A stretch of 64,000 nt of DNA, taken from the NCBI RefSeq assembly GCF_017656495.1, contig NZ_JACDNS010000004.1, positions 62,001 to 126,000 on the forward strand, read 5' to 3'. The notes beneath the pieces were generated by a model. That model did not search any database. It had not been told where the DNA came from and saw only the letters and a program-made list of their open reading frames with translations. The stretch is from Thermococcus sp. (GTDB taxonomy: Archaea > Methanobacteriota_B > Thermococci > Thermococcales > Thermococcaceae). Both the position numbers and the translations under genes were made by a program. Of the stretch, positions 49,881 through 60,125 are shown piece by piece. Numbering within the stretch: position 1 is the stretch's first letter; the number at the start of each line of letters is the position of its first letter.

Positions 49881-50328
49881 GATCCTTAAGTTTGAACTTA
49901 TCTCCTGTTAAGCTGTCCATCACATAAACTTCTCCTTCTTTTTCAAATATCCAGAAGACCTTATACACCTCCACTTCTTGTACCACCTCAATTTTCGGTG
50001 TCCACCAACTTATAACCATTAAATTCCCCCAATTAAATGCGCTTTCTACAGCTTTTTGCCTTGCCTCTTCTTCTGTTATGTTTGGACTCATAATTACATC
50101 TTTTGGAACTTTCCATTCTTGGATTTCTATAATTCCGTCTCCTCTTTCAACTCCAAAGCGATAGCAATCAACATATGCAAAATAATCCACAACCCTATCT
50201 GACATCTTTAGACGTTTGTACAAGAGTTTTATATGGTATATCCTGTAGGGATAAAGAATAAACTTTGCACGATTTTGATCTTCTGGTTTAAATATTGGCC
50301 TCATTACTTGAACCAATATGCTCTCCAT
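49873..50328 (-). CDS. Hypothetical protein
   Basis: A 151-residue soluble protein (RIYHIKLLYKRLKMSDRVVD, then WTPKIEVVQEVEVYKVFWIF) with a Cys-poor alpha/beta composition. GGGGGTAG precedes the ATG at 50328. The 3' end overlaps drg by eight bases. No family was recognised. Confidence 0.55.
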   Translation of the reverse strand: MESILVQVMRPIFKPEDQNRAKFILYPYRIYHIKLLYKRLKMSDRVVDYFAYVDCYRFGVERGDGIIEIQEWKVPKDVIMSPNITEEEARQKAVESAFNWGNLMVISWWTPKIEVVQEVEVYKVFWIFEKEGEVYVMDSLTGDKFKLKDLI

Positions 50329-50431
50329 TTGACTACCCCCGTAACAGTTTAACATATTTCTTATTTATAACTCTAATTGATGAATCATAATTCATAAAAT
50401 TCTGTTGCATATGTTCAAATTTTCTACGGCG

Positions 50432-50443
50432 TTAATTTTATAT
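50432..50443 (+). promoter_or_regulatory. TATA box of the proline symporter operon
   Basis: TTTTATATATG lies about 70 bases before the small membrane gene at 50509; the expected transcription start is near 50465. Confidence 0.5.
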
Positions 50444-50508
50444 ATGTAAAGTACATAAATGAAAATTGCAGTACACTAGTGCTGCACTTCGTTATGGGAG
50501 GTGGAAAA

Positions 50509-50685
50509 ATGGGCCTCAGTGGTGCTGCTTGGGCAACGTTAATTGTACCAACTCTTTTGGGAATTTTAGTGATGGTACTATATGGCTTTTGGGACAAAAT
50601 AACAGGCAAGGAGTACTATGTTGACGACGAAATATTGGCATACGACGAAGAGTTACTAAAAGAGCTTGAGGGGGGTAAGAAATGA
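50509..50685 (+). CDS. Small single-TM protein, partner of the downstream symporter
   Basis: A 58-residue protein with one N-terminal transmembrane helix (about 3-24) and an acidic cytoplasmic tail (YVDDEILAYDEELLKELE). The ATG at 50509 follows GGAGGTGG; the in-frame ATG at 50479 is rejected. It overlaps the symporter start by four bases. Like the 2245-2457 gene it precedes an SSS permease and is probably an accessory subunit. Confidence 0.68.
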   Translation: MGLSGAAWATLIVPTLLGILVMVLYGFWDKITGKEYYVDDEILAYDEELLKELEGGKK

Positions 50686-52289
50686 ACGCTGGGATACTAA
50701 TTGGTTTCTTGGCTTACTTGGCTCTTTTGGCATATATCGGCTGGTGGGCAAACAGATTTACAAAAACCGAAGACCAGTATTTCGTTGGTGGAAGAAAAGT
50801 TCACATTCTTGCTGCTGCTCTCAGTGATAAAGCAAGTGACTTTTCTGGCTGGCTGATGCTTGGTTATCCAGGAAGTGCATTTAAAGCAGGTTTAGGTGCA
50901 TTTTGGGCAGCAATTGGATGTCTCTTTGGAACCTTGGCAGACTATGTGTTAATTGGTCCAAGATTGAGAATTTATGCAGGTAAATTCAGGGCAATTACAG
51001 TCCCAGACTACTTAGAAGCAAGACTTAAGGATGATACAAAGCTGATTAGAATCCTTGGTGCTGCAATTATATTGGTTTTCATGACAGCTTATGTGGCAGC
51101 ACAATTTGCAGCAGGTGGAAAAGCACTAGCCCAGGCGTTTGATATCAGTGTTAACACCGGTATACTAATAACTGTGATTATACTAACTGCCTATGTTATT
51201 ACGGGAGGATTCTTTGCAGTTGTCTGGACCGACGTAGTGCAGGCATTGTTCATGGTATTGACACTCATTATAGTGCCTATCTTAGCCCTTGCAAAGATTG
51301 GTGGACTTGACAAGGCAACCCAATACATGGAACCTGCAAAGCTACATCCATTCGGAGGTGCTGTCGGCTTCGCTGCATTAATCTTTGCCATTGGTTACGC
51401 TTCATGGATTGTTGGTTATCTAGGCCAGCCTCACATAGTCACAAGATACATGAGTGTTGAAGACCCAAGAAAGCTCAGGAGGCCGGGTATCTTTATCAGC
51501 GGTATATGGACAATTATCGTCCTTTGGGGTGCATTCTTTGCTGGATTCCTCGGATATGCTATGGTTAAGGCAGGTATTTTACAAGTTAGTGATCCAGAGA
51601 GAGTCATTCCTGCAATGGCTGTTGAGCTCATGCCGTCTTGGCTAGCAGGATTTGTTATCGCAGGTATAATTTCAGCAATAATGAGTACAGCTGATTCTCA
51701 GCTCCTAGTAGCTTCTTCAGCAGTTACTAGAGATTTATATCACAAAGTTCTTGGAAAGGAGCTTGGGAAGAAGCAGATAGTCAATATTGGTAGAATAGTC
51801 GTCTTGGGCGTTGCACTCTTTGCTCTCTATGGGGCATTAACAGGAAGCAAATTCATCTATGGTATGGTTGCGACTGCATGGGGTGGCTTGGCTGTTGGAT
51901 TTGGTCCAATATTAACCCTAAGCCTTTGGTGGAAGCGTGTTACAAAAGAAGCTGGAATTATAGGAATGGCATATGGTTTAATCTCTGAAGTAATCCTTGA
52001 GTCAAAGATTTATGGTTGGGCATTTAATCCAGATGCTCCAGGATTCTTTGGAACTCTCGGCTCAATCTTTAATGGAGTCCCGGTGTTTTTCATAAACTTC
52101 TTCGTTACACTGTTCATAATAATCATTGTCAGTTTACTTACAAAGCCACCGGAAGATGTCGTTAAGCTCCATGACCAGCTCTTCAAGAAAGTTCCAATTC
52201 AGGAAAGTGGTAAGAAGGTCATGGAGGCAAGAGCAAAAAGTCAGGTTGAAAATGTTGCTGCTTTCATTAAAGCTAGGGGCCTTGCTTGA
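50682..52289 (+). CDS. putP: Sodium/proline symporter, PutP-like (SSS family)
   Basis: A 535-residue permease with about 13 membrane helices and the PutP signatures ALSDKASDFSGWLMLGYPG and AIMSTADSQLLVASSA. It is coupled by a four-base overlap to the small upstream gene and lies directly before the proline dehydrogenase cluster, supporting proline as substrate (context plus family). The C-terminus is a charged amphipathic tail. Confidence 0.87.
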   Translation: MNAGILIGFLAYLALLAYIGWWANRFTKTEDQYFVGGRKVHILAAALSDKASDFSGWLMLGYPGSAFKAGLGAFWAAIGCLFGTLADYVLIGPRLRIYAGKFRAITVPDYLEARLKDDTKLIRILGAAIILVFMTAYVAAQFAAGGKALAQAFDISVNTGILITVIILTAYVITGGFFAVVWTDVVQALFMVLTLIIVPILALAKIGGLDKATQYMEPAKLHPFGGAVGFAALIFAIGYASWIVGYLGQPHIVTRYMSVEDPRKLRRPGIFISGIWTIIVLWGAFFAGFLGYAMVKAGILQVSDPERVIPAMAVELMPSWLAGFVIAGIISAIMSTADSQLLVASSAVTRDLYHKVLGKELGKKQIVNIGRIVVLGVALFALYGALTGSKFIYGMVATAWGGLAVGFGPILTLSLWWKRVTKEAGIIGMAYGLISEVILESKIYGWAFNPDAPGFFGTLGSIFNGVPVFFINFFVTLFIIIIVSLLTKPPEDVVKLHDQLFKKVPIQESGKKVMEARAKSQVENVAAFIKARGLA

Positions 52290-52412
52290 TTTTCTCTTCT
52301 TTTTAACTTTTAGTGTAAAACTATAGGTTTTAACATTAAGGTTTATAAGTTTTCGAGGAGTTCTATGATTACGAAACCATCTACTAAGAGCAAAGTCAAA
52401 GAAGGTGATATT

Positions 52413-53627
52413 ATGCGCCTTTTGGATTTGTATGAGAAAGATCCTTCTAAAAAAGTCACAATTTATTTTGAAGGAAAATCCTTGGAGGCATATAAAGGAG
52501 AGCCAATCCACGTTGCACTGCTTGCGAATGGGATAAAATGGATTACAACGAGCGGGCATGGGAGGAAAAGAGGTGCATTTACTTTTGGTCCAGTTCTTGT
52601 TACCATTAATGGTATCAGAAACTATGATGGCAGAAAAACCAAAGTTTGGAATGGAATGAAAATTGAAATGCAGAGCTACATGGAACCATTGCCAGAGCGT
52701 TTAGGAGAGATTGGAAAAGTGAGACGATATTACACAGATATTGTGATTGTTGGCAGTGGTGCTGCGGGATTAGGGGCTGCTTTGGAAATGCAAGATGATC
52801 TAGAAGTAATGGTCTTTGAAGAAAAAGGAAGATTAGGCTGGGGCTTGCTGAAGAGGAGTGTGCTCCTTAGTAATGGCAAGAAACCAAAAGAATTTAGAGA
52901 GGAACTTGTTGAACAGCTCAGAGCTAAAACATTTACGAGAACACCTGTTCTTGGTGTCTTTCGTGATGGGGAATATTTTATTGTGGTTGCAAATAGGGGA
53001 AATGATCTAATAGAAGTCACAGCTAAGAGAGTCGTTATCTCAACAGGAGGAATAGCAAAATTCACTCTCTTTGAGAACAACGAGATGCCTGGTGTATTTA
53101 GGGAGGACTTTGTTCTTGAATTGCTAAACATTTGGGGTGTCAAACCTGGGAACAAGGTAACAATCTATGGTAGCAATTCTCAAAACATTGCCAGAGAACT
53201 TGAAAATCACGGTTTGAACTATACACTCATTGAGAATCCAATACTAAGAGCAGAAGGTGAAAATGAAGTTGAAAGAGTCGTAGATGCAGAAGGAATTGTG
53301 TACGAAACGGATGCTCTAATTATAGCTGAGGGATACAGGCCAGACATACACTTAGCACAGCAAGTTGGAGGAGAAATAGCGTACATTGAAGAGCTTGGAG
53401 GTTACCTTCCTCTTAGGAACAAAAGGAATGAGATTGTTGATGGAATTTATATTGCTGGAAATGCTTCTTGGATTAAAGGAAGTTATGAAAACTATCTTGA
53501 GGGCAGATTAGTTGGAGCTTATATCATTGAGGAATTTGGGCTCAGAGGTAATGTTGATCAAATAAAGAGAGAATTCCTCAAGAAAATTGGGGATAAAGCA
53601 TCTCTTCTTGAGGAGGTGATTTTATGA
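52413..53627 (+). CDS. PdhA-paralogue flavoprotein without [2Fe-2S] cysteines
   Basis: A 404-residue FAD/NAD(P)-type oxidoreductase subunit related to the proline dehydrogenase alpha subunit at 55223. The N-terminal beta-grasp domain (about 12-88) aligns with the [2Fe-2S] domain of PdhA, but all four ligands are lost; the region reads KRGAFTFGPVLVTINGI. The entire protein has no cysteine. An FAD motif (IVIVGSGAAGLGAAL) is intact. The start is the ATG at 52413 behind GAAGGTGAT. It is cotranscribed with the next two genes. Partner enzyme and substrate unknown. Confidence 0.82.
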   Translation: MRLLDLYEKDPSKKVTIYFEGKSLEAYKGEPIHVALLANGIKWITTSGHGRKRGAFTFGPVLVTINGIRNYDGRKTKVWNGMKIEMQSYMEPLPERLGEIGKVRRYYTDIVIVGSGAAGLGAALEMQDDLEVMVFEEKGRLGWGLLKRSVLLSNGKKPKEFREELVEQLRAKTFTRTPVLGVFRDGEYFIVVANRGNDLIEVTAKRVVISTGGIAKFTLFENNEMPGVFREDFVLELLNIWGVKPGNKVTIYGSNSQNIARELENHGLNYTLIENPILRAEGENEVERVVDAEGIVYETDALIIAEGYRPDIHLAQQVGGEIAYIEELGGYLPLRNKRNEIVDGIYIAGNASWIKGSYENYLEGRLVGAYIIEEFGLRGNVDQIKREFLKKIGDKASLLEEVIL

Positions 53628-53920
53628 TTAAGCTCAATATTGATTTGGAAAAGGTTAATCCGGAGGAAGTTTTCATCTGTGGATGTGATGTTACGCTAAA
53701 AGACATTCTCGACTTAATTGATCAAGGAATTACGGATATCCAGCTGATTAAAAGGTTAACCCATGTTGGTATGGGGTTCTGTCAAGGGAGGTACTGCATT
53801 GACACAGTGGCTCAGGTAATTGCATGGAAGACAGAAAAGGATTTGAAGGAAATAAAGCTGCCAGATGCTAGAATGCCAGTCAGACCAGTGAAAATGAAGG
53901 TGATGGCAAATGAGAAGTGA
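53624..53920 (+). CDS. BFD-like [2Fe-2S] protein (PdhX paralogue)
   Basis: A 98-residue protein with the BFD cluster Cys pattern C19-x-C21 ... C53-x4-C58 (FICGCDV, FCQGRYC). Electron-transfer subunit by analogy with PdhX. The ATG overlaps the preceding stop by four bases. Confidence 0.82.
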   Translation: MIKLNIDLEKVNPEEVFICGCDVTLKDILDLIDQGITDIQLIKRLTHVGMGFCQGRYCIDTVAQVIAWKTEKDLKEIKLPDARMPVRPVKMKVMANEK

Positions 53921-55049
53921 GATTGTTATCATTGGTGGAGGGATTATTGGAGTTACACTTGCCCATGAGCTTGCGAAAAGGGGAGAGCAGGTTACAGTAT
54001 TGGAAAAAAAGTACATTGGCTCAGGCTCAACTTTTAGGTGCGGAACTGGAATAAGACAGCAGTTTACTGATGAAGCCAACATTAAGGTTATGAAGCGTTC
54101 GGTTGAGCTGTGGAAGAAATACAGTGAAGAATTTGGTTTTCCGTTTAAGCAAACGGGATATCTGTTTCTTCTCTATGACGATGAGGAAGTGAGGGAGTTT
54201 AAGAGAAATATCAAGCTTCAGAACAAATTTGGAGTCCCAACGAGGCTTATAACACCTGAGGAGGCTAAGGAGATAGTTCCTATTTTGGATATAAGTGAAG
54301 TCGTTGCAGCATCATGGAACCCAACTGATGGAAAAGCTGACCCCTTCTTTGCTACAACTGCGTTTGCAAGAGAAGCAGAAAAACTTGGTGCTAAAATTTT
54401 TGAATATACCGAAGCCAAGGATATAATAGTTGAAAATGGCGAGATAAGGGGAGTTAAGACAAATAAAGGTATAATTAAAACTGAAATCGTTATTAATGCA
54501 GCAAATGCATGGGCTAAGCTGATTAATGCAATGGCCAAAATCCCAATTAAAATCCCGATTGAACCGTATAAGCATCAAGGAGTTATTACACAGCCGCTCA
54601 AAGGAGGAGAAATTAATCCAATGATAATTTCTTTGAAATATAACGATGCATATCTAACTCAAACAGAGCATGGGGGCATTATTGGTGGAGTAGGGGTTGA
54701 ATATGGTCCTACCTACGATTTGACACCTACTTATGAGTTCCTAAGGGAAGTCAGCAAGGCATTTACAAAGATAATCCCAGTTCTTGGTGAGCTTTTGATA
54801 CTTAGAACATGGGCGGGGTTCTATGCAAAAACACCAGACAGCAATCCAGCAATTGGGAGGATAGAGGAGATTAATGAATTCTACATTGCTGCTGGCTTTA
54901 GTGGGCACGGTTTCATGATGGCTCCAGCTGTTGCTGAGATGCTTGCAGATTTAATAACAAGAGGAAAGACTGAGTTACCAATTGAATGGTATGACCCATA
55001 TCGTTTTGAGCGTGGAGAGTTGAGAGAAACTGCACTCCAGATGGGATGA
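53910..55049 (+). CDS. PdhB paralogue, FAD-dependent amine/imino-acid dehydrogenase
   Basis: A 379-residue DAO-family flavoprotein: N-terminal dinucleotide motif VIIGGGIIGVTLAHELAKRG, GSGSTFRCGTGIRQQF, and the C-terminal GFSGHGFMMAP. It is a clear paralogue of PdhB at 57445 and would oxidise an amino or imino acid. With its two upstream neighbours it forms a three-gene unit lacking a PdhF-type ferredoxin. It overlaps the upstream gene by 11 bases. Confidence 0.85.
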   Translation: MRSEIVIIGGGIIGVTLAHELAKRGEQVTVLEKKYIGSGSTFRCGTGIRQQFTDEANIKVMKRSVELWKKYSEEFGFPFKQTGYLFLLYDDEEVREFKRNIKLQNKFGVPTRLITPEEAKEIVPILDISEVVAASWNPTDGKADPFFATTAFAREAEKLGAKIFEYTEAKDIIVENGEIRGVKTNKGIIKTEIVINAANAWAKLINAMAKIPIKIPIEPYKHQGVITQPLKGGEINPMIISLKYNDAYLTQTEHGGIIGGVGVEYGPTYDLTPTYEFLREVSKAFTKIIPVLGELLILRTWAGFYAKTPDSNPAIGRIEEINEFYIAAGFSGHGFMMAPAVAEMLADLITRGKTELPIEWYDPYRFERGELRETALQMG

Positions 55050-55090
55050 TTTTTGCCTTATAATCCTTTTTATTGAAAAATTTTCGTCTA

Positions 55091-55137
55091 TTCTCAGATT
55101 AATTAGACATTGTTATATTCTGAAATCTTAATTAGGC
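55091..55137. repeat. Near-identical direct repeat upstream of pdhA
   Basis: TTCTCAGATTAATTAGAC (55091-55108) and TTCTGAAATCTTAATTAGGC (55118-55137) are two similar copies in the 173-bp spacer before the pdhA promoter. They may be tandem binding sites for a regulator. The TTAATTAGG core also occurs in the 8.87-kb inverted repeat arm. Confidence 0.4.
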
Positions 55138-55222
55138 AAAAGAAAGGCAACCAAAGGTGCAAAACTTTTTTATCAAAAAATCCTCATAAACAAGTTTTAC
55201 ATATTTCATGCTGGTGAAACTT

Positions 55223-56659
55223 ATGAGGCTCACTGAACATCCTATTCTAAATTTTCAAGAAAAACGTGGCAGAAAAATCACAATCTATTTTGAAGGACAA
55301 CCAATTGAGGCATATGAAGGAGAAACAATAGTCATGGCCTTACATGCTGCCGGTATAAGAGTCCTTGGATACAGTGTTCACAAACATAGACCCCGTGGCT
55401 TGTTCTGTGCAATTGGAAAGTGTGCTTCGTGTTTAATGACAGTAAATGGAATTCCGAATGTAAGAACATGTATAACACTCGTTGAAGATGGCATGAAAAT
55501 AGAGAGGCAGAAAGACAAACCAAAGCTCCCCCCAACGGTTAAACCACCTAAATTCAAGGAAGCTAAAAAAGTTTCTGGTGATATAGTGATTATTGGTGGG
55601 GGACCTGCTGGACTTATGGCTGCAATAAATGCTGCCGATGCCGGAGCCAAGGTCATTCTTCTTGATGAAAACCCAATGCTCGGAGGTCAGTTGGTGAAGC
55701 AAACTCATAAGTTCTTTGGAAAGAGAGAGCAGTTTGCGGGGGTTAGGGGAGTTAAGATAGCAGAAATTTTGGAGGAAGAGGTTAGAAAAAGAGAAAACAT
55801 TGAGATTTTCCTTGAAACTTCAGCGATAATGCTTCTCCAGGATGGAGATGAAAAGCTCGTAGTTGGGGTTAGGAAAAATAAAGAGCTCATTGAATTCAGG
55901 GGAAAAGCCGTTATTGTTGCAACTGGAGCAATGGAAAAGATGATACCTTTTGAGGGCAATGATTTGCCTGGTGTTTATGGGGCAGGAGCTATTCAGACAT
56001 TAATGAACACATATGGAGTCAAACCGGGGGATAGAGTTCTCATTGTTGGTGCCGGAAACGTTGGATTAATCTTAGCTTATCAGCTAATCCAAGCTGGCGT
56101 TGACGTAAAAGCTATAGTAGAAGCGATGCCAAAGATTGGAGGCTATTTCGTTCACGCAGCAAAGATTAGAAGATTAGGCGTCCCAATTCTGACAAGGCAC
56201 ACTATTCTTAGAGCTGAAGGGAAAGAAAAAGTTGAGAGAGCAGTTGTTGCTCAAATTGACGAAAAGTGGAGATCAATTCCGGGAACCGAGAAAGTATTTG
56301 ATGTTGATGTAATTGCCCTAGCTGTTGGACTAAGGCCAAGCATAGAGCTCCTTCATCAGGTCGGCTGTCAAATTAAATACGTCCCAGAACTTGGAGGGCA
56401 TGTTGTGATTAGAGACAGCAGAATGGAAACGACAATTAAGGGAATCTTTGTTGCAGGAGATTCAGCAGGAATTGAGGAGGCAACAACGGCAATGCTTGAA
56501 GGAAAGATAGCTGGAATTGCTGCTGCTCTGGAAATTGGTACTGCTTCATCAGAATGGTTCAAAGAGATAGAAAAAGCCCAGAAAGAGCTTGATGAGTTTA
56601 GAGCTGGGCCATTTGGTAGGAAAGTTCTTGAGGGTATTAAGAAGGTGGTGGTAGAATGA
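55223..56659 (+). CDS. pdhA: Dye-linked L-proline dehydrogenase alpha subunit
   Basis: A 478-residue subunit: N-terminal [2Fe-2S] domain with C62-x4-C67-x2-C70-x12-C83 (LFCAIGKCASC), then an FAD/NADH-type domain (IVIIGGGPAGLMAAINAA) and a C-terminal nucleotide fold (VLIVGAGNVGL). In Thermococcales PDH1 it is part of an alpha-beta-gamma-delta complex, pdhA-F-X-B. The start is the ATG at 55223 behind GGTGAAAC; the ATG at 55208 would enclose the ribosome binding site. Confidence 0.92.
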   Translation: MRLTEHPILNFQEKRGRKITIYFEGQPIEAYEGETIVMALHAAGIRVLGYSVHKHRPRGLFCAIGKCASCLMTVNGIPNVRTCITLVEDGMKIERQKDKPKLPPTVKPPKFKEAKKVSGDIVIIGGGPAGLMAAINAADAGAKVILLDENPMLGGQLVKQTHKFFGKREQFAGVRGVKIAEILEEEVRKRENIEIFLETSAIMLLQDGDEKLVVGVRKNKELIEFRGKAVIVATGAMEKMIPFEGNDLPGVYGAGAIQTLMNTYGVKPGDRVLIVGAGNVGLILAYQLIQAGVDVKAIVEAMPKIGGYFVHAAKIRRLGVPILTRHTILRAEGKEKVERAVVAQIDEKWRSIPGTEKVFDVDVIALAVGLRPSIELLHQVGCQIKYVPELGGHVVIRDSRMETTIKGIFVAGDSAGIEEATTAMLEGKIAGIAAALEIGTASSEWFKEIEKAQKELDEFRAGPFGRKVLEGIKKVVVE

Positions 56660-57162
56660 GTGAAATCCCACACTACCTCAGAGAGGGATTCATAACGGTT
56701 GAAGAGCTCAAGCAAGTTATAGAACTTCCTAGCGAGGAGCGCTTGAGGAAAAGACCTGTTGCAATTCCTGAATGTCCTCAGGAAATTCCGTGTACGCCGT
56801 GTAAGGAAATCTGTCCTACAAACGCTGTTCTTATGGAAAATCCAAATGCAATTCCGATCGTTGATTACGAAAAATGCATTGGCTGTTCTTTGTGTGTGCA
56901 GATTTGTCCCGGCTTGGCATTCTTCATGATTCACTACGTTGGTGATAAAGCCAGAGTGACCATGCCACATGAGCTTTTACCAGTTCCAAAGGTTGGGGAG
57001 GAAGTGATTTTGCTCAACAGGGTCGGAGAAGAAGTGGGAAGAGGGAAAGTGATTACAGTAGTGCCAAGAGAGAAAAGCAAGGGAGATACGCCAATAATAA
57101 CGGTTGAAATGCCAATTGAACTCGCTTGGGATGTTAGGGCTGTCAAGGTGGTGAGAAAATGA
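56656..57162 (+). CDS. pdhF: Proline dehydrogenase gamma subunit (ferredoxin-like)
   Basis: A 168-residue protein with two iron-sulfur motifs: CPQEIPCTPCKEICP and CIGCSLCVQICP. A C-terminal beta-rich domain follows. Electron-transfer subunit of the complex; overlaps pdhA and pdhX by four bases each. Confidence 0.9.
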   Translation: MSEIPHYLREGFITVEELKQVIELPSEERLRKRPVAIPECPQEIPCTPCKEICPTNAVLMENPNAIPIVDYEKCIGCSLCVQICPGLAFFMIHYVGDKARVTMPHELLPVPKVGEEVILLNRVGEEVGRGKVITVVPREKSKGDTPIITVEMPIELAWDVRAVKVVRK

Positions 57163-57461
57163 GTGAGAAAAACCCAAAGAAAAACATCATAATTTGTCGC
57201 TGTAATGAAGTAACTCAAGAGGAAATCGAGGCTCTAATAGACCAGGGAGTCACTGACATCGAAATGATAAAGAGGCTTTTAAGGATAGGCATGGGGCCGT
57301 GTCAAGGGAGGACCTGCCTTCCAATGGTTATTTCGATCCTTGCAAGGAAAACTGGTAAAAAACCAGATGAGATCAAGCTTCCTGCAACAAGAATTCCCGT
57401 GAGACCTGTTCCAGCCGGAGTATTAGTAGGTGAGATGGAGAGTGATGAGAATGAAGAGTAG
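57159..57461 (+). CDS. pdhX: Proline dehydrogenase delta subunit, BFD-like [2Fe-2S]
   Basis: A 100-residue protein with cluster ligands C13-x-C15 ... C48-x4-C53 (IICRCNE, PCQGRTC). It overlaps pdhF and pdhB in a tightly coupled operon and is closely similar to the 53624 paralogue. Confidence 0.88.
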   Translation: MSEKNPKKNIIICRCNEVTQEEIEALIDQGVTDIEMIKRLLRIGMGPCQGRTCLPMVISILARKTGKKPDEIKLPATRIPVRPVPAGVLVGEMESDENEE

Positions 57462-58620
57462 GGCTGAAGTTGTCATTATTGGTGGAGGTGTCATTGGACT
57501 CTCAATAGCTTACCATTTGGGAAAGCTTGGGGTTGAAGACGTTGTTGTCCTTGAGAAGAACTACATAGGTTCAGGTTCAACCTTCAGATGTGCCTCTGGA
57601 ATTAGAGCACAATTTACCGATGAAGCAAATATAAAGCTTCAAAAGTACAACATCGAGAGATGGAAGAGGCTTAGTGATGAGCTTGAGCATGATATAAACT
57701 TCAAACAGAGTGGATATCTATTCTTAGCAACAAGTGAGGAAGAAGTTGAAGTATTTAAGAAAAATATAAAGCTCCAGAACAAGTTTGGAGTTCCTACAAG
57801 GCTCATTAGCATGGACGAGGCAAAGGAAATTGTCCCACCTCTTAATACAGAGCCCTTCCTAGCCGGTGCATGGAACCCTGAAGATGGCAAAGCAAGTCCG
57901 TTCCACGTTGTTTACGGGTTTGCAAAGAAAGCAAAAGAATTTGGTGTTGAGATTTACGAATATACACCAGCAGTTGATATAATAGTGGAAAATTGTGAGA
58001 TAAAAGGAGTTAAAACTGAGAGAGGCATGATAAAGACTGAAACAGTAGTCAATGCTGCAAATGCATGGGCACCTGTGGTAAATGAAATGGCTGGACTAAA
58101 GAGGGACTTTGTCCCAATAAAGCCGTACAAGCATCAACTTGTCAAAACTGAGCCAATAGCAGAGGGACAAATTGAACCATTGACGTGTCCCCCTGCATGG
58201 AATGACTCTTATGTCATCCAAGATGGTGAAGATGGCGGTGTCATCTGCGGAACGGGGCTTGAGAAGCTCACTCATTTAGATGATGTTCAACCTACATATG
58301 ACTTCATAAGGGAAGTCCTTAAGTGGGCAACAAAAATTATTCCTGCTTTGAAGTATGTTCACGTTGTTAGGCAGTGGGCGGGGTTCTATGCCAAAACACC
58401 TGATAAAAACCCAGCAATTGGAAAGATTAATTACATTGATGGATTTTATATAGCTGCAGGTTTCAGTGGGCACGGTTTCATGATGGCACCAGGAGTTGGT
58501 GAAGCTATAGCGGAATTGATTGTCAAAGGAAAATCAAAGGTACCACTTGATTGGGACTGGTACGACCCACACAGATTCGAGCGTGGAGAATTGAGAAGTG
58601 CAGCATTCCAGATTGGTTGA
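57445..58620 (+). CDS. pdhB: Dye-linked L-proline dehydrogenase beta subunit (catalytic)
   Basis: About 391 residues: FAD motif VVIIGGGVIGLSIAYHLGKLG, SGSTFRCASGIRAQF, and C-terminal GFSGHGFMMAPGVGEA. It oxidises proline to pyrroline-5-carboxylate and passes electrons through the other subunits. The start is uncertain (ATG 57445 or 57451; GGAG upstream); overlaps pdhX. Confidence 0.9.
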   Translation: MRMKSRAEVVIIGGGVIGLSIAYHLGKLGVEDVVVLEKNYIGSGSTFRCASGIRAQFTDEANIKLQKYNIERWKRLSDELEHDINFKQSGYLFLATSEEEVEVFKKNIKLQNKFGVPTRLISMDEAKEIVPPLNTEPFLAGAWNPEDGKASPFHVVYGFAKKAKEFGVEIYEYTPAVDIIVENCEIKGVKTERGMIKTETVVNAANAWAPVVNEMAGLKRDFVPIKPYKHQLVKTEPIAEGQIEPLTCPPAWNDSYVIQDGEDGGVICGTGLEKLTHLDDVQPTYDFIREVLKWATKIIPALKYVHVVRQWAGFYAKTPDKNPAIGKINYIDGFYIAAGFSGHGFMMAPGVGEAIAELIVKGKSKVPLDWDWYDPHRFERGELRSAAFQIG

Positions 58621-58652
58621 TTCTTTTGGTTTTTCTTTTTGGGTTTATTGCA
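58621..58652 (+). terminator. U-rich terminator after pdhB
   Basis: The stop is followed by TTCTTTTGGTTTTTCTTTTT, a strong run of uridines typical of archaeal termination. Confidence 0.5.
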
Positions 58653-58892
58653 TTTATTAGGGTGGTTCCTCATTTCTCGCATCTGTAAGACACTTTAGAA
58701 TTTGAGCAAATGATAAGGGGCGAGAGGAGCAGAGCCTCCCGATAATCGAAGAAAGTAAGGAAAGGTGTGAAGAACTTAGTTTTTTCCAGAAGTCCCCGGT
58801 AGATGAGAAAAAGCGAAATGTGGAGCAAAGCTTCACAATGGAGAATTGAGAGTACAGAGAAATAAGAGGTTTCGCTCCTTTGTCTTTCGTTA
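58653..58892. other. Non-coding spacer downstream of tRNA-Leu
   Basis: 240 bases between pdhB and the tRNA 3' end. A minus-strand frame stays open through it but runs in from the tRNA and has no start of its own. A small hairpin (GAGG AGCAGAG CCTC, near 58728) is visible. No gene assigned. Confidence 0.4.
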
Positions 58893-58980
58893 TGGTGCGG
58901 GGGCCGGGATTTGAACCCGGGAACCCCTGCGGGACGGGACCCTAAATCCCGCGCCTTTGACCAGGCTCGGCAACCCCCGC
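58893..58980 (-). tRNA. tRNA-Leu (anticodon UAG)
   Basis: 88 bases including an encoded CCA end. Acceptor GCGGGGG pairs with CCCCCGC. Anticodon stem CGGGA/TCCCG encloses loop TTTAGGG with anticodon UAG (leucine codons CUA/CUG). A long variable arm (type II) and the T-arm GGGTTCAAATCCC are present. The minus-strand TATA at 59005-59012 gives a start next to base 1. No intron. Confidence 0.95.
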
Positions 58981-59004
58981 TCAGCATTAATGAAATGTGC
59001 TGGA

Positions 59005-59012
59005 TATTTAAA
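59005..59012 (-). promoter_or_regulatory. TATA box of tRNA-Leu
   Basis: TTTAAATA on the minus strand, 25 to 32 bases before the tRNA 5' end. Confidence 0.6.
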
Positions 59013-59021
59013 GGTTTCTGA

Positions 59022-60125
<1,104 letters not shown>

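What the first reader, a model, noticed from the sequence alone, without database searches (positions are those of the whole stretch)
52413..55049. Cysteine-free PdhA paralogue with PdhX- and PdhB-like partners
The N-terminal ferredoxin-like domain of the 404-residue protein aligns with the PdhA [2Fe-2S] domain but lacks all four ligands (and the whole protein lacks Cys), while its BFD-like partner keeps its own four cysteines. No PdhF is present. The unit is probably a distinct amino/imino-acid dehydrogenase with a shorter electron path, or a regulatory paralogue.
Basis: partly seen in the sequence, partly recalled or inferred. Interest (0 to 1): 0.7.

Follow-up and report, generated by a model that had tools for sequence, protein, structure and literature searches.

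The report
Archaeal proline dehydrogenase with unfused alpha
The three genes encode a heat-loving archaeon's version of an already crystallised L-proline-oxidising enzyme (Pyrococcus horikoshii PDH1); the missing cysteines are normal for that enzyme, and the only unusual point is that its large subunit is made as two separate proteins instead of one.

Summary
In detail: the 404-aa protein (52413-53627) has no cysteine, its ferredoxin-like domain lacks all four ligands, the 98-aa partner keeps four cysteines, and PdhF is absent from the trio. The reading as a distinct or regulatory paralogue mostly fails. The trio is the positional and sequence counterpart of the alpha4beta4 L-proline dehydrogenase (PDH1, PDB 1Y56, PH1363/PH1364) of Pyrococcus horikoshii. 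1Y56 chain A matches the 404-aa protein and the 98-aa protein in tandem; chain B is 81% identical to the 379-aa protein. The cysteine loss was described for 1Y56 in 2007 and holds in all 41 Thermococcales PDH1-type alphas checked. The T. litoralis layout (PDH1 next to alpha-beta-gamma-delta PDH2) is also published. What differs is that alpha is encoded by two overlapping genes here and in six related genomes (three GTDB genera), whereas it is one fused gene elsewhere. Trees and outgroups suggest the separate state is ancestral. Likely mechanism: the beta FAD oxidises L-proline, electrons pass to an interface FMN, then perhaps to the four-cysteine site of the 98-aa protein and an acceptor; the cysteine-free subunit is a nucleotide-binding scaffold. 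Substrate, cofactors and stoichiometry are inferred. Interest is low.

The parts
50682..52289 (+). PutP-like Na+/proline symporter (SSF), next to PDH1 in most Thermococcales
   Evidence: Pfam SSF E 5e-81; best NCBIfam hit sodium/proline symporter, 394 bits, below its 515.5 cut-off; synteny
52342..52349 (+). TATA-box-like TTTATAAG upstream of the trio (inferred promoter)
   Evidence: sequence printed; not tested
52404..52409 (+). GGTGAT Shine-Dalgarno of the 404-aa gene
   Evidence: sequence
52413..53627 (+). PDH1-type alpha, N-terminal part: cysteine-free ferredoxin-like domain plus degenerate flavin/nucleotide-binding domain (404 aa)
   Evidence: 1Y56_A residues 3-379, E 3e-110; 0 Cys; fold search top hit 1Y56_A
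53615..53620 (+). GGTGAT Shine-Dalgarno of the 98-aa gene, inside the end of the 404-aa gene
   Evidence: sequence
53624..53920 (+). BFD-like four-cysteine protein (98 aa), the unfused C-terminal domain of PDH1 alpha
   Evidence: 1Y56_A residues 402-492, E 1e-28; Fer2_BFD and SO_alpha_A3
53899..53904 (+). GGTGAT Shine-Dalgarno of the beta gene, inside the 98-aa gene
   Evidence: sequence
53910..55049 (+). PDH1-type beta, FAD-dependent L-proline dehydrogenase subunit (379 aa)
   Evidence: 1Y56_B E 2e-213; 81% identical to the P. horikoshii gene; RTW motif
55208..56659 (+). PdhA of the neighbouring alpha-beta-gamma-delta enzyme (context, not part of the trio)
   Evidence: Fer2_4 E 2e-30 and Pyr_redox_2
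56656..57162 (+). PdhF, 4Fe-4S ferredoxin-like (context)
   Evidence: Fer4
57159..57461 (+). PdhX, BFD-like (context)
   Evidence: Fer2_BFD
57448..58620 (+). PdhB, DAO-family beta subunit (context)
   Evidence: DAO; 58% identical to the trio's beta

Best explanation
The trio is the Thermococcales dye-linked L-proline dehydrogenase of the alpha4beta4 type (PDH1 of P. horikoshii, PH1363/PH1364, PDB 1Y56) with its alpha subunit encoded by two overlapping genes. Shown here: homology over the full length of both 1Y56 chains, conserved gene position, general cysteine loss, and degeneration of the FAD and NAD(P)H motifs in alpha. Inferred from the characterised enzyme: beta oxidises L-proline with FAD, passes electrons to FMN held at the alpha/beta interface, and from there possibly to the four-cysteine site of the 98-aa protein and an external acceptor (ferredoxin or a dye). 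The 404-aa protein is then a scaffold that binds a nucleotide (ATP in 1Y56) and completes the FMN site, not an electron carrier. Probable composition (alpha, 98-aa subunit, beta) times four. The separate 98-aa gene is probably ancestral and the one-gene alpha a later fusion.
For: 1Y56_A matches both proteins in tandem (E 3e-110 and 1e-28) and 1Y56_B matches beta (E 2e-213). Genome G006 encodes the 1Y56_A segment and has the same order DUF-PutP-alpha-beta. All 41 PDH1-type alphas lack Cys in the ferredoxin-like domain, as published for 1Y56 (PMC1949818). PDH1-type alphas also lose the Asp of the C-terminal FAD-site GD motif and about 25 residues around the second dinucleotide motif. Tree: PDH1-type alphas one clade (100/99), fused ones one clade inside (99/93), and cysteine-bearing outgroups have a separate BFD gene where the contig extends far enough. 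Beta keeps the Arg-x-Trp proposed for FMN (PMC4575208). Neighbours are PutP or proline racemase plus an OCD-family protein. PMC4364671 reports the same PDH1-PDH2 layout in T. litoralis.
Against: Alpha is only about 50% identical to P. horikoshii alpha, while beta is 81%, so alpha has drifted and its ATP or FMN binding may differ. The alpha and beta trees conflict: alpha rejects grouping the genus's split copies with the main fused group (p 6e-6), whereas the beta tree favours that grouping. The split group itself is weakly supported (85/56). The AlphaFold model is of moderate quality (pLDDT 79, pTM 0.65; TM 0.47 to 1Y56_A). No biochemistry exists for any split form that I could find.
Confidence: 0.92

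Rival explanations
1. A PDH1-derived enzyme whose substrate has shifted to another imino or amino acid (D-proline, hydroxyproline, pipecolate, sarcosine).
For: Alpha of the split group is fast-evolving (long stem 0.35-0.39). [quoted passage not shown]
Against: Beta, the catalytic subunit in 1Y56, is 81% identical to the P. horikoshii beta and keeps its position in the locus. The adjacent transporter's best model is the proline symporter.
Confidence: 0.05
2. A regulatory or non-catalytic paralogue of PdhA that assembles with the neighbouring PDH2 subunits.
For: Adjacent operons; alpha has no FeS ligands and degenerate FAD/NAD motifs.
Against: The trio carries its own intact beta and BFD proteins under purifying selection. 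P. horikoshii (G006) has the PDH1 locus about 300 kb from its second beta homologue. Published alpha4beta4 and alpha-beta-gamma-delta enzymes are separate active complexes (PMC8704557).
Confidence: 0.02
3. The split is a recent frameshift or stop in a normally fused alpha gene, or an assembly error.
For: In most genomes the two parts are one gene.
Against: Same boundary in seven genomes of three genera; each gene has its own GGTGAT Shine-Dalgarno; the 98-aa protein is 91-95% identical in the genus with dN/dS 0.03-0.12; the split copies fall outside the fused clade.
Confidence: 0.01

Closest known systems
Pyrococcus horikoshii PDH1 (PH1363/PH1364, PDB 1Y56), alpha4beta4 dye-linked L-proline dehydrogenase
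   Same: Full-length homology of both chains, cysteine-free ferredoxin-like domain, four-cysteine BFD domain, locus neighbours (PutP, DUF)
   Different: Alpha is one 493-aa chain there and two chains (404 + 98) here; alpha about 50% identical
Thermococcus litoralis OCC_00357/OCC_00352 followed by OCC_00347-00332 (PMC4364671)
   Same: PDH1-type unit directly followed by the alpha-gamma-delta-beta unit
   Different: Described as two genes (alpha and beta) there; three here
Thermococcus profundus pdhA-F-X-B, alpha-beta-gamma-delta L-proline dehydrogenase
   Same: Subunit families; separate BFD-like subunit
   Different: PdhA of this type keeps the [2Fe-2S] cysteines, FAD motif and second dinucleotide site (seen in the window's own PdhA), and it has PdhF
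Opine dehydrogenase OdhABC and D-hydroxyproline dehydrogenase (PMC4575208), HcnABC
   Same: Three-protein complexes; OpnDH is alpha4beta4gamma4 with FAD in alpha and beta, interface FMN and an Fe-S cluster
   Different: Different domain partition; the ferredoxin-like part is the separate gamma subunit and carries the cluster

Membership tests
alpha4beta4-type L-proline dehydrogenase (PDH1) | alpha homologous to PH1363 over its whole length | tested here: met
   1Y56_A 3-379 and 402-492 covered by two adjacent genes
alpha4beta4-type L-proline dehydrogenase (PDH1) | beta homologous to PH1364 | tested here: met
   E 2e-213, 81% identity
alpha4beta4-type L-proline dehydrogenase (PDH1) | ferredoxin-like domain without cysteine ligands | tested here: met
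   PMC1949818
alpha4beta4-type L-proline dehydrogenase (PDH1) | two-chain (alpha, beta) composition | tested here: not met
   Three genes here; alpha split. The domains are all present; only the gene organisation differs, so it is filed as a variant of PDH1, not as a standard alpha4beta4 member
alpha4beta4-type L-proline dehydrogenase (PDH1) | FAD, FMN and ATP bound; L-proline:dye activity; hetero-octamer | not testable with these tools
   only sequence motifs seen (RTW in beta)
alpha-beta-gamma-delta L-proline dehydrogenase (PDH2) | PdhA with four [2Fe-2S] cysteines, FAD GD motif and second dinucleotide motif | tested here: not met
alpha-beta-gamma-delta L-proline dehydrogenase (PDH2) | PdhF subunit in the operon | tested here: not met
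   absent between 52413 and 55049
Heterotetrameric sarcosine oxidase | full SoxA/SoxB model scores | tested here: not met
   109.6 and 187.4 bits against cut-offs 1164 and 529

The most novel reading that the evidence does not exclude
The split lineage preserves an ancestral three-subunit intermediate between PDH2-like complexes and the fused PDH1, in which the ferredoxin-like cluster and NADH site of alpha were lost before the BFD domain was fused; its detachable 98-aa redox protein could exchange with the PdhX of the adjacent PDH2.
Probability: 0.12. Interest if true: 0.4.

Novelty: new variant of a known kind. Interest (0 to 1): 0.2.

Why it matters
It corrects a tempting over-reading: the missing cysteines are the hallmark of a crystallised enzyme, not a sign of new chemistry. 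The unfused alpha is a modest, testable clue to the order in which this enzyme lost redox centres and fused subunits.

Tried and rejected
Regulatory paralogue (own intact beta and BFD genes, purifying selection). Broken alpha gene (same boundary in seven genomes). Sarcosine oxidase membership (scores far below cut-offs). Rfam scan of 50000-60000 gave nothing relevant to the trio. The primary papers on 1Y56 and on the two P. horikoshii enzymes were not held, so ATP, FMN and NADH-dehydrogenase statements about PDH1 rest on titles cited in held papers, on secondary descriptions and on my own knowledge. The AlphaFold model was too coarse for pocket analysis.

Full report
Observation. Three overlapping + strand ORFs encode 404, 98 and 379 residues. 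The 404-aa protein has no cysteine, but Pfam still recognises a ferredoxin-like Fer2_4 domain at residues 13-88. Aligned with the PdhA encoded just downstream, the first ligand is lost in a 4-residue deletion and the others become F58, V61 and R74; R74 is invariant and F58 nearly so among 17 PDH1-type alphas. The 98-aa protein keeps CxC...CxxxxC. No PdhF lies between the genes; the one at 56656-57162 belongs to the pdhA-F-X-B operon that follows.

Identity. Search of solved structures settles what it is. Chain A of 1Y56, the L-proline dehydrogenase of Pyrococcus horikoshii, aligns from residue 3 to 379 with the 404-aa protein (E 3e-110) and from 402 to 492 with the 98-aa protein (E 1e-28). Chain B aligns end to end with the 379-aa protein (E 2e-213). 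A predicted structure of the 404-aa protein, of moderate quality (pLDDT 79, pTM 0.65), finds 1Y56_A first by a wide margin in E-value. So the small partner is not a PdhX-like accessory of a PdhA paralogue; it is the C-terminal domain of PDH1 alpha carried on its own gene. (PMC4575208 notes the reverse comparison: the delta subunit of the alpha-beta-gamma-delta enzyme resembles the C-terminal ~90 residues of P. horikoshii alpha.)

The cysteine loss is not new. PMC1949818 (2007) states that the N-terminal domain of 1Y56 derives from 2Fe-2S ferredoxins by loss of the metal-chelating cysteines. In 41 Thermococcales loci I extracted, every PDH1-type alpha lacks cysteine in that domain (the few cysteines are in N-terminal extensions or the C-terminal half), whereas PDH2-type alphas keep four. 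PDH1-type alphas also lose the Asp of the C-terminal FAD-site GD motif and about 25 residues around the second dinucleotide-binding motif. This fits an alpha that holds ATP rather than FAD and lacks NADH dehydrogenase activity, which I recall for P. horikoshii PDH1 but could not re-read.

Gene organisation. Of 94 genomes of the order, the 404-aa form with a separate 98-aa gene occurs in G000, G087, G090, G091 and G092 (same genus), G002 and G093 (two further genera). Elsewhere alpha is a single frame of about 500 residues, including G088 of the same genus; some incomplete genomes show only fragments or no copy. Fusion was verified gene by gene in 34 of them. The locus is the same: Lrp - GTPase - DUF - PutP - alpha - (98 aa) - beta, also in G006, which encodes the 1Y56_A sequence. 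In G088 and G093 the symporter is replaced by an SNF transporter, a proline racemase-family and an ornithine cyclodeaminase-family gene, resembling the T. litoralis cluster of PMC4364671. All point to proline.

Evolution. With PDH2-type and other cysteine-bearing alphas as outgroup, PDH1-type alphas form one clade (100/99) and fused ones a clade within it (99/93), leaving split ones outside. The cysteine-bearing relatives have a separate BFD gene wherever the contig extends far enough. The simplest reading is that separate genes are ancestral and fusion happened once. The split group itself is weak (85/56), the root rests on a long branch, and the beta tree disagrees: it places the genus's split betas with the main fused group (95/97) and rejects a split clade (p 0.018). 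Either subunit histories differ or rates mislead.

Function. All three genes are under purifying selection (dN/dS 0.03-0.12 for the trio genes in within-genus pairs). Each has its own GGTGAT Shine-Dalgarno and overlaps its neighbour, so coupled translation in fixed ratio is likely (inference). Most likely path, by analogy with 1Y56: L-proline to beta FAD, to interface FMN (Arg-x-Trp present; PMC4575208), then perhaps the four-cysteine site of the 98-aa protein, then an acceptor such as ferredoxin. The homology is shown; substrate, cofactors, electron order and stoichiometry are inferred.

Verdict. A positional counterpart of a crystallised enzyme with an unfused alpha: new variant of a known kind, low interest. 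I found no report of the three-gene form in the open papers searched, but the main reviews were not available to me.

Noticed in passing
whole genome G000: No aldehyde dehydrogenase-family (PF00171) gene was found in a 99.95% complete genome although it encodes two proline dehydrogenases, so the usual P5C dehydrogenase is missing; how P5C is used is open.
   Followed up: partly
L083:2761-5339: A contig labelled Candidatus Heimdallarchaeota (MAG) encodes a fused PDH1-type alpha without ferredoxin-domain Cys (38%) and a beta (72%): transfer or mis-binning.
   Followed up: partly
L039 and L040, upstream of alpha: In G093 and G088 the PutP gene is replaced by an SNF transporter, a proline racemase-family and an OCD-family gene.
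   Followed up: yes
L064, L067, L073 (second beta genes): PDH2-unit betas of G021, G001 and G024 form a separate deep branch and are closer to PDH1 beta (65%) than to the window's PdhB, hinting at subunit exchange.
   Followed up: no
alpha versus beta trees: Alpha and beta of the split form give conflicting placements.
   Followed up: partly
58893-58980: tRNA-Leu on the - strand after pdhB; the 10-kb Rfam scan with gathering thresholds missed it.
   Followed up: yes
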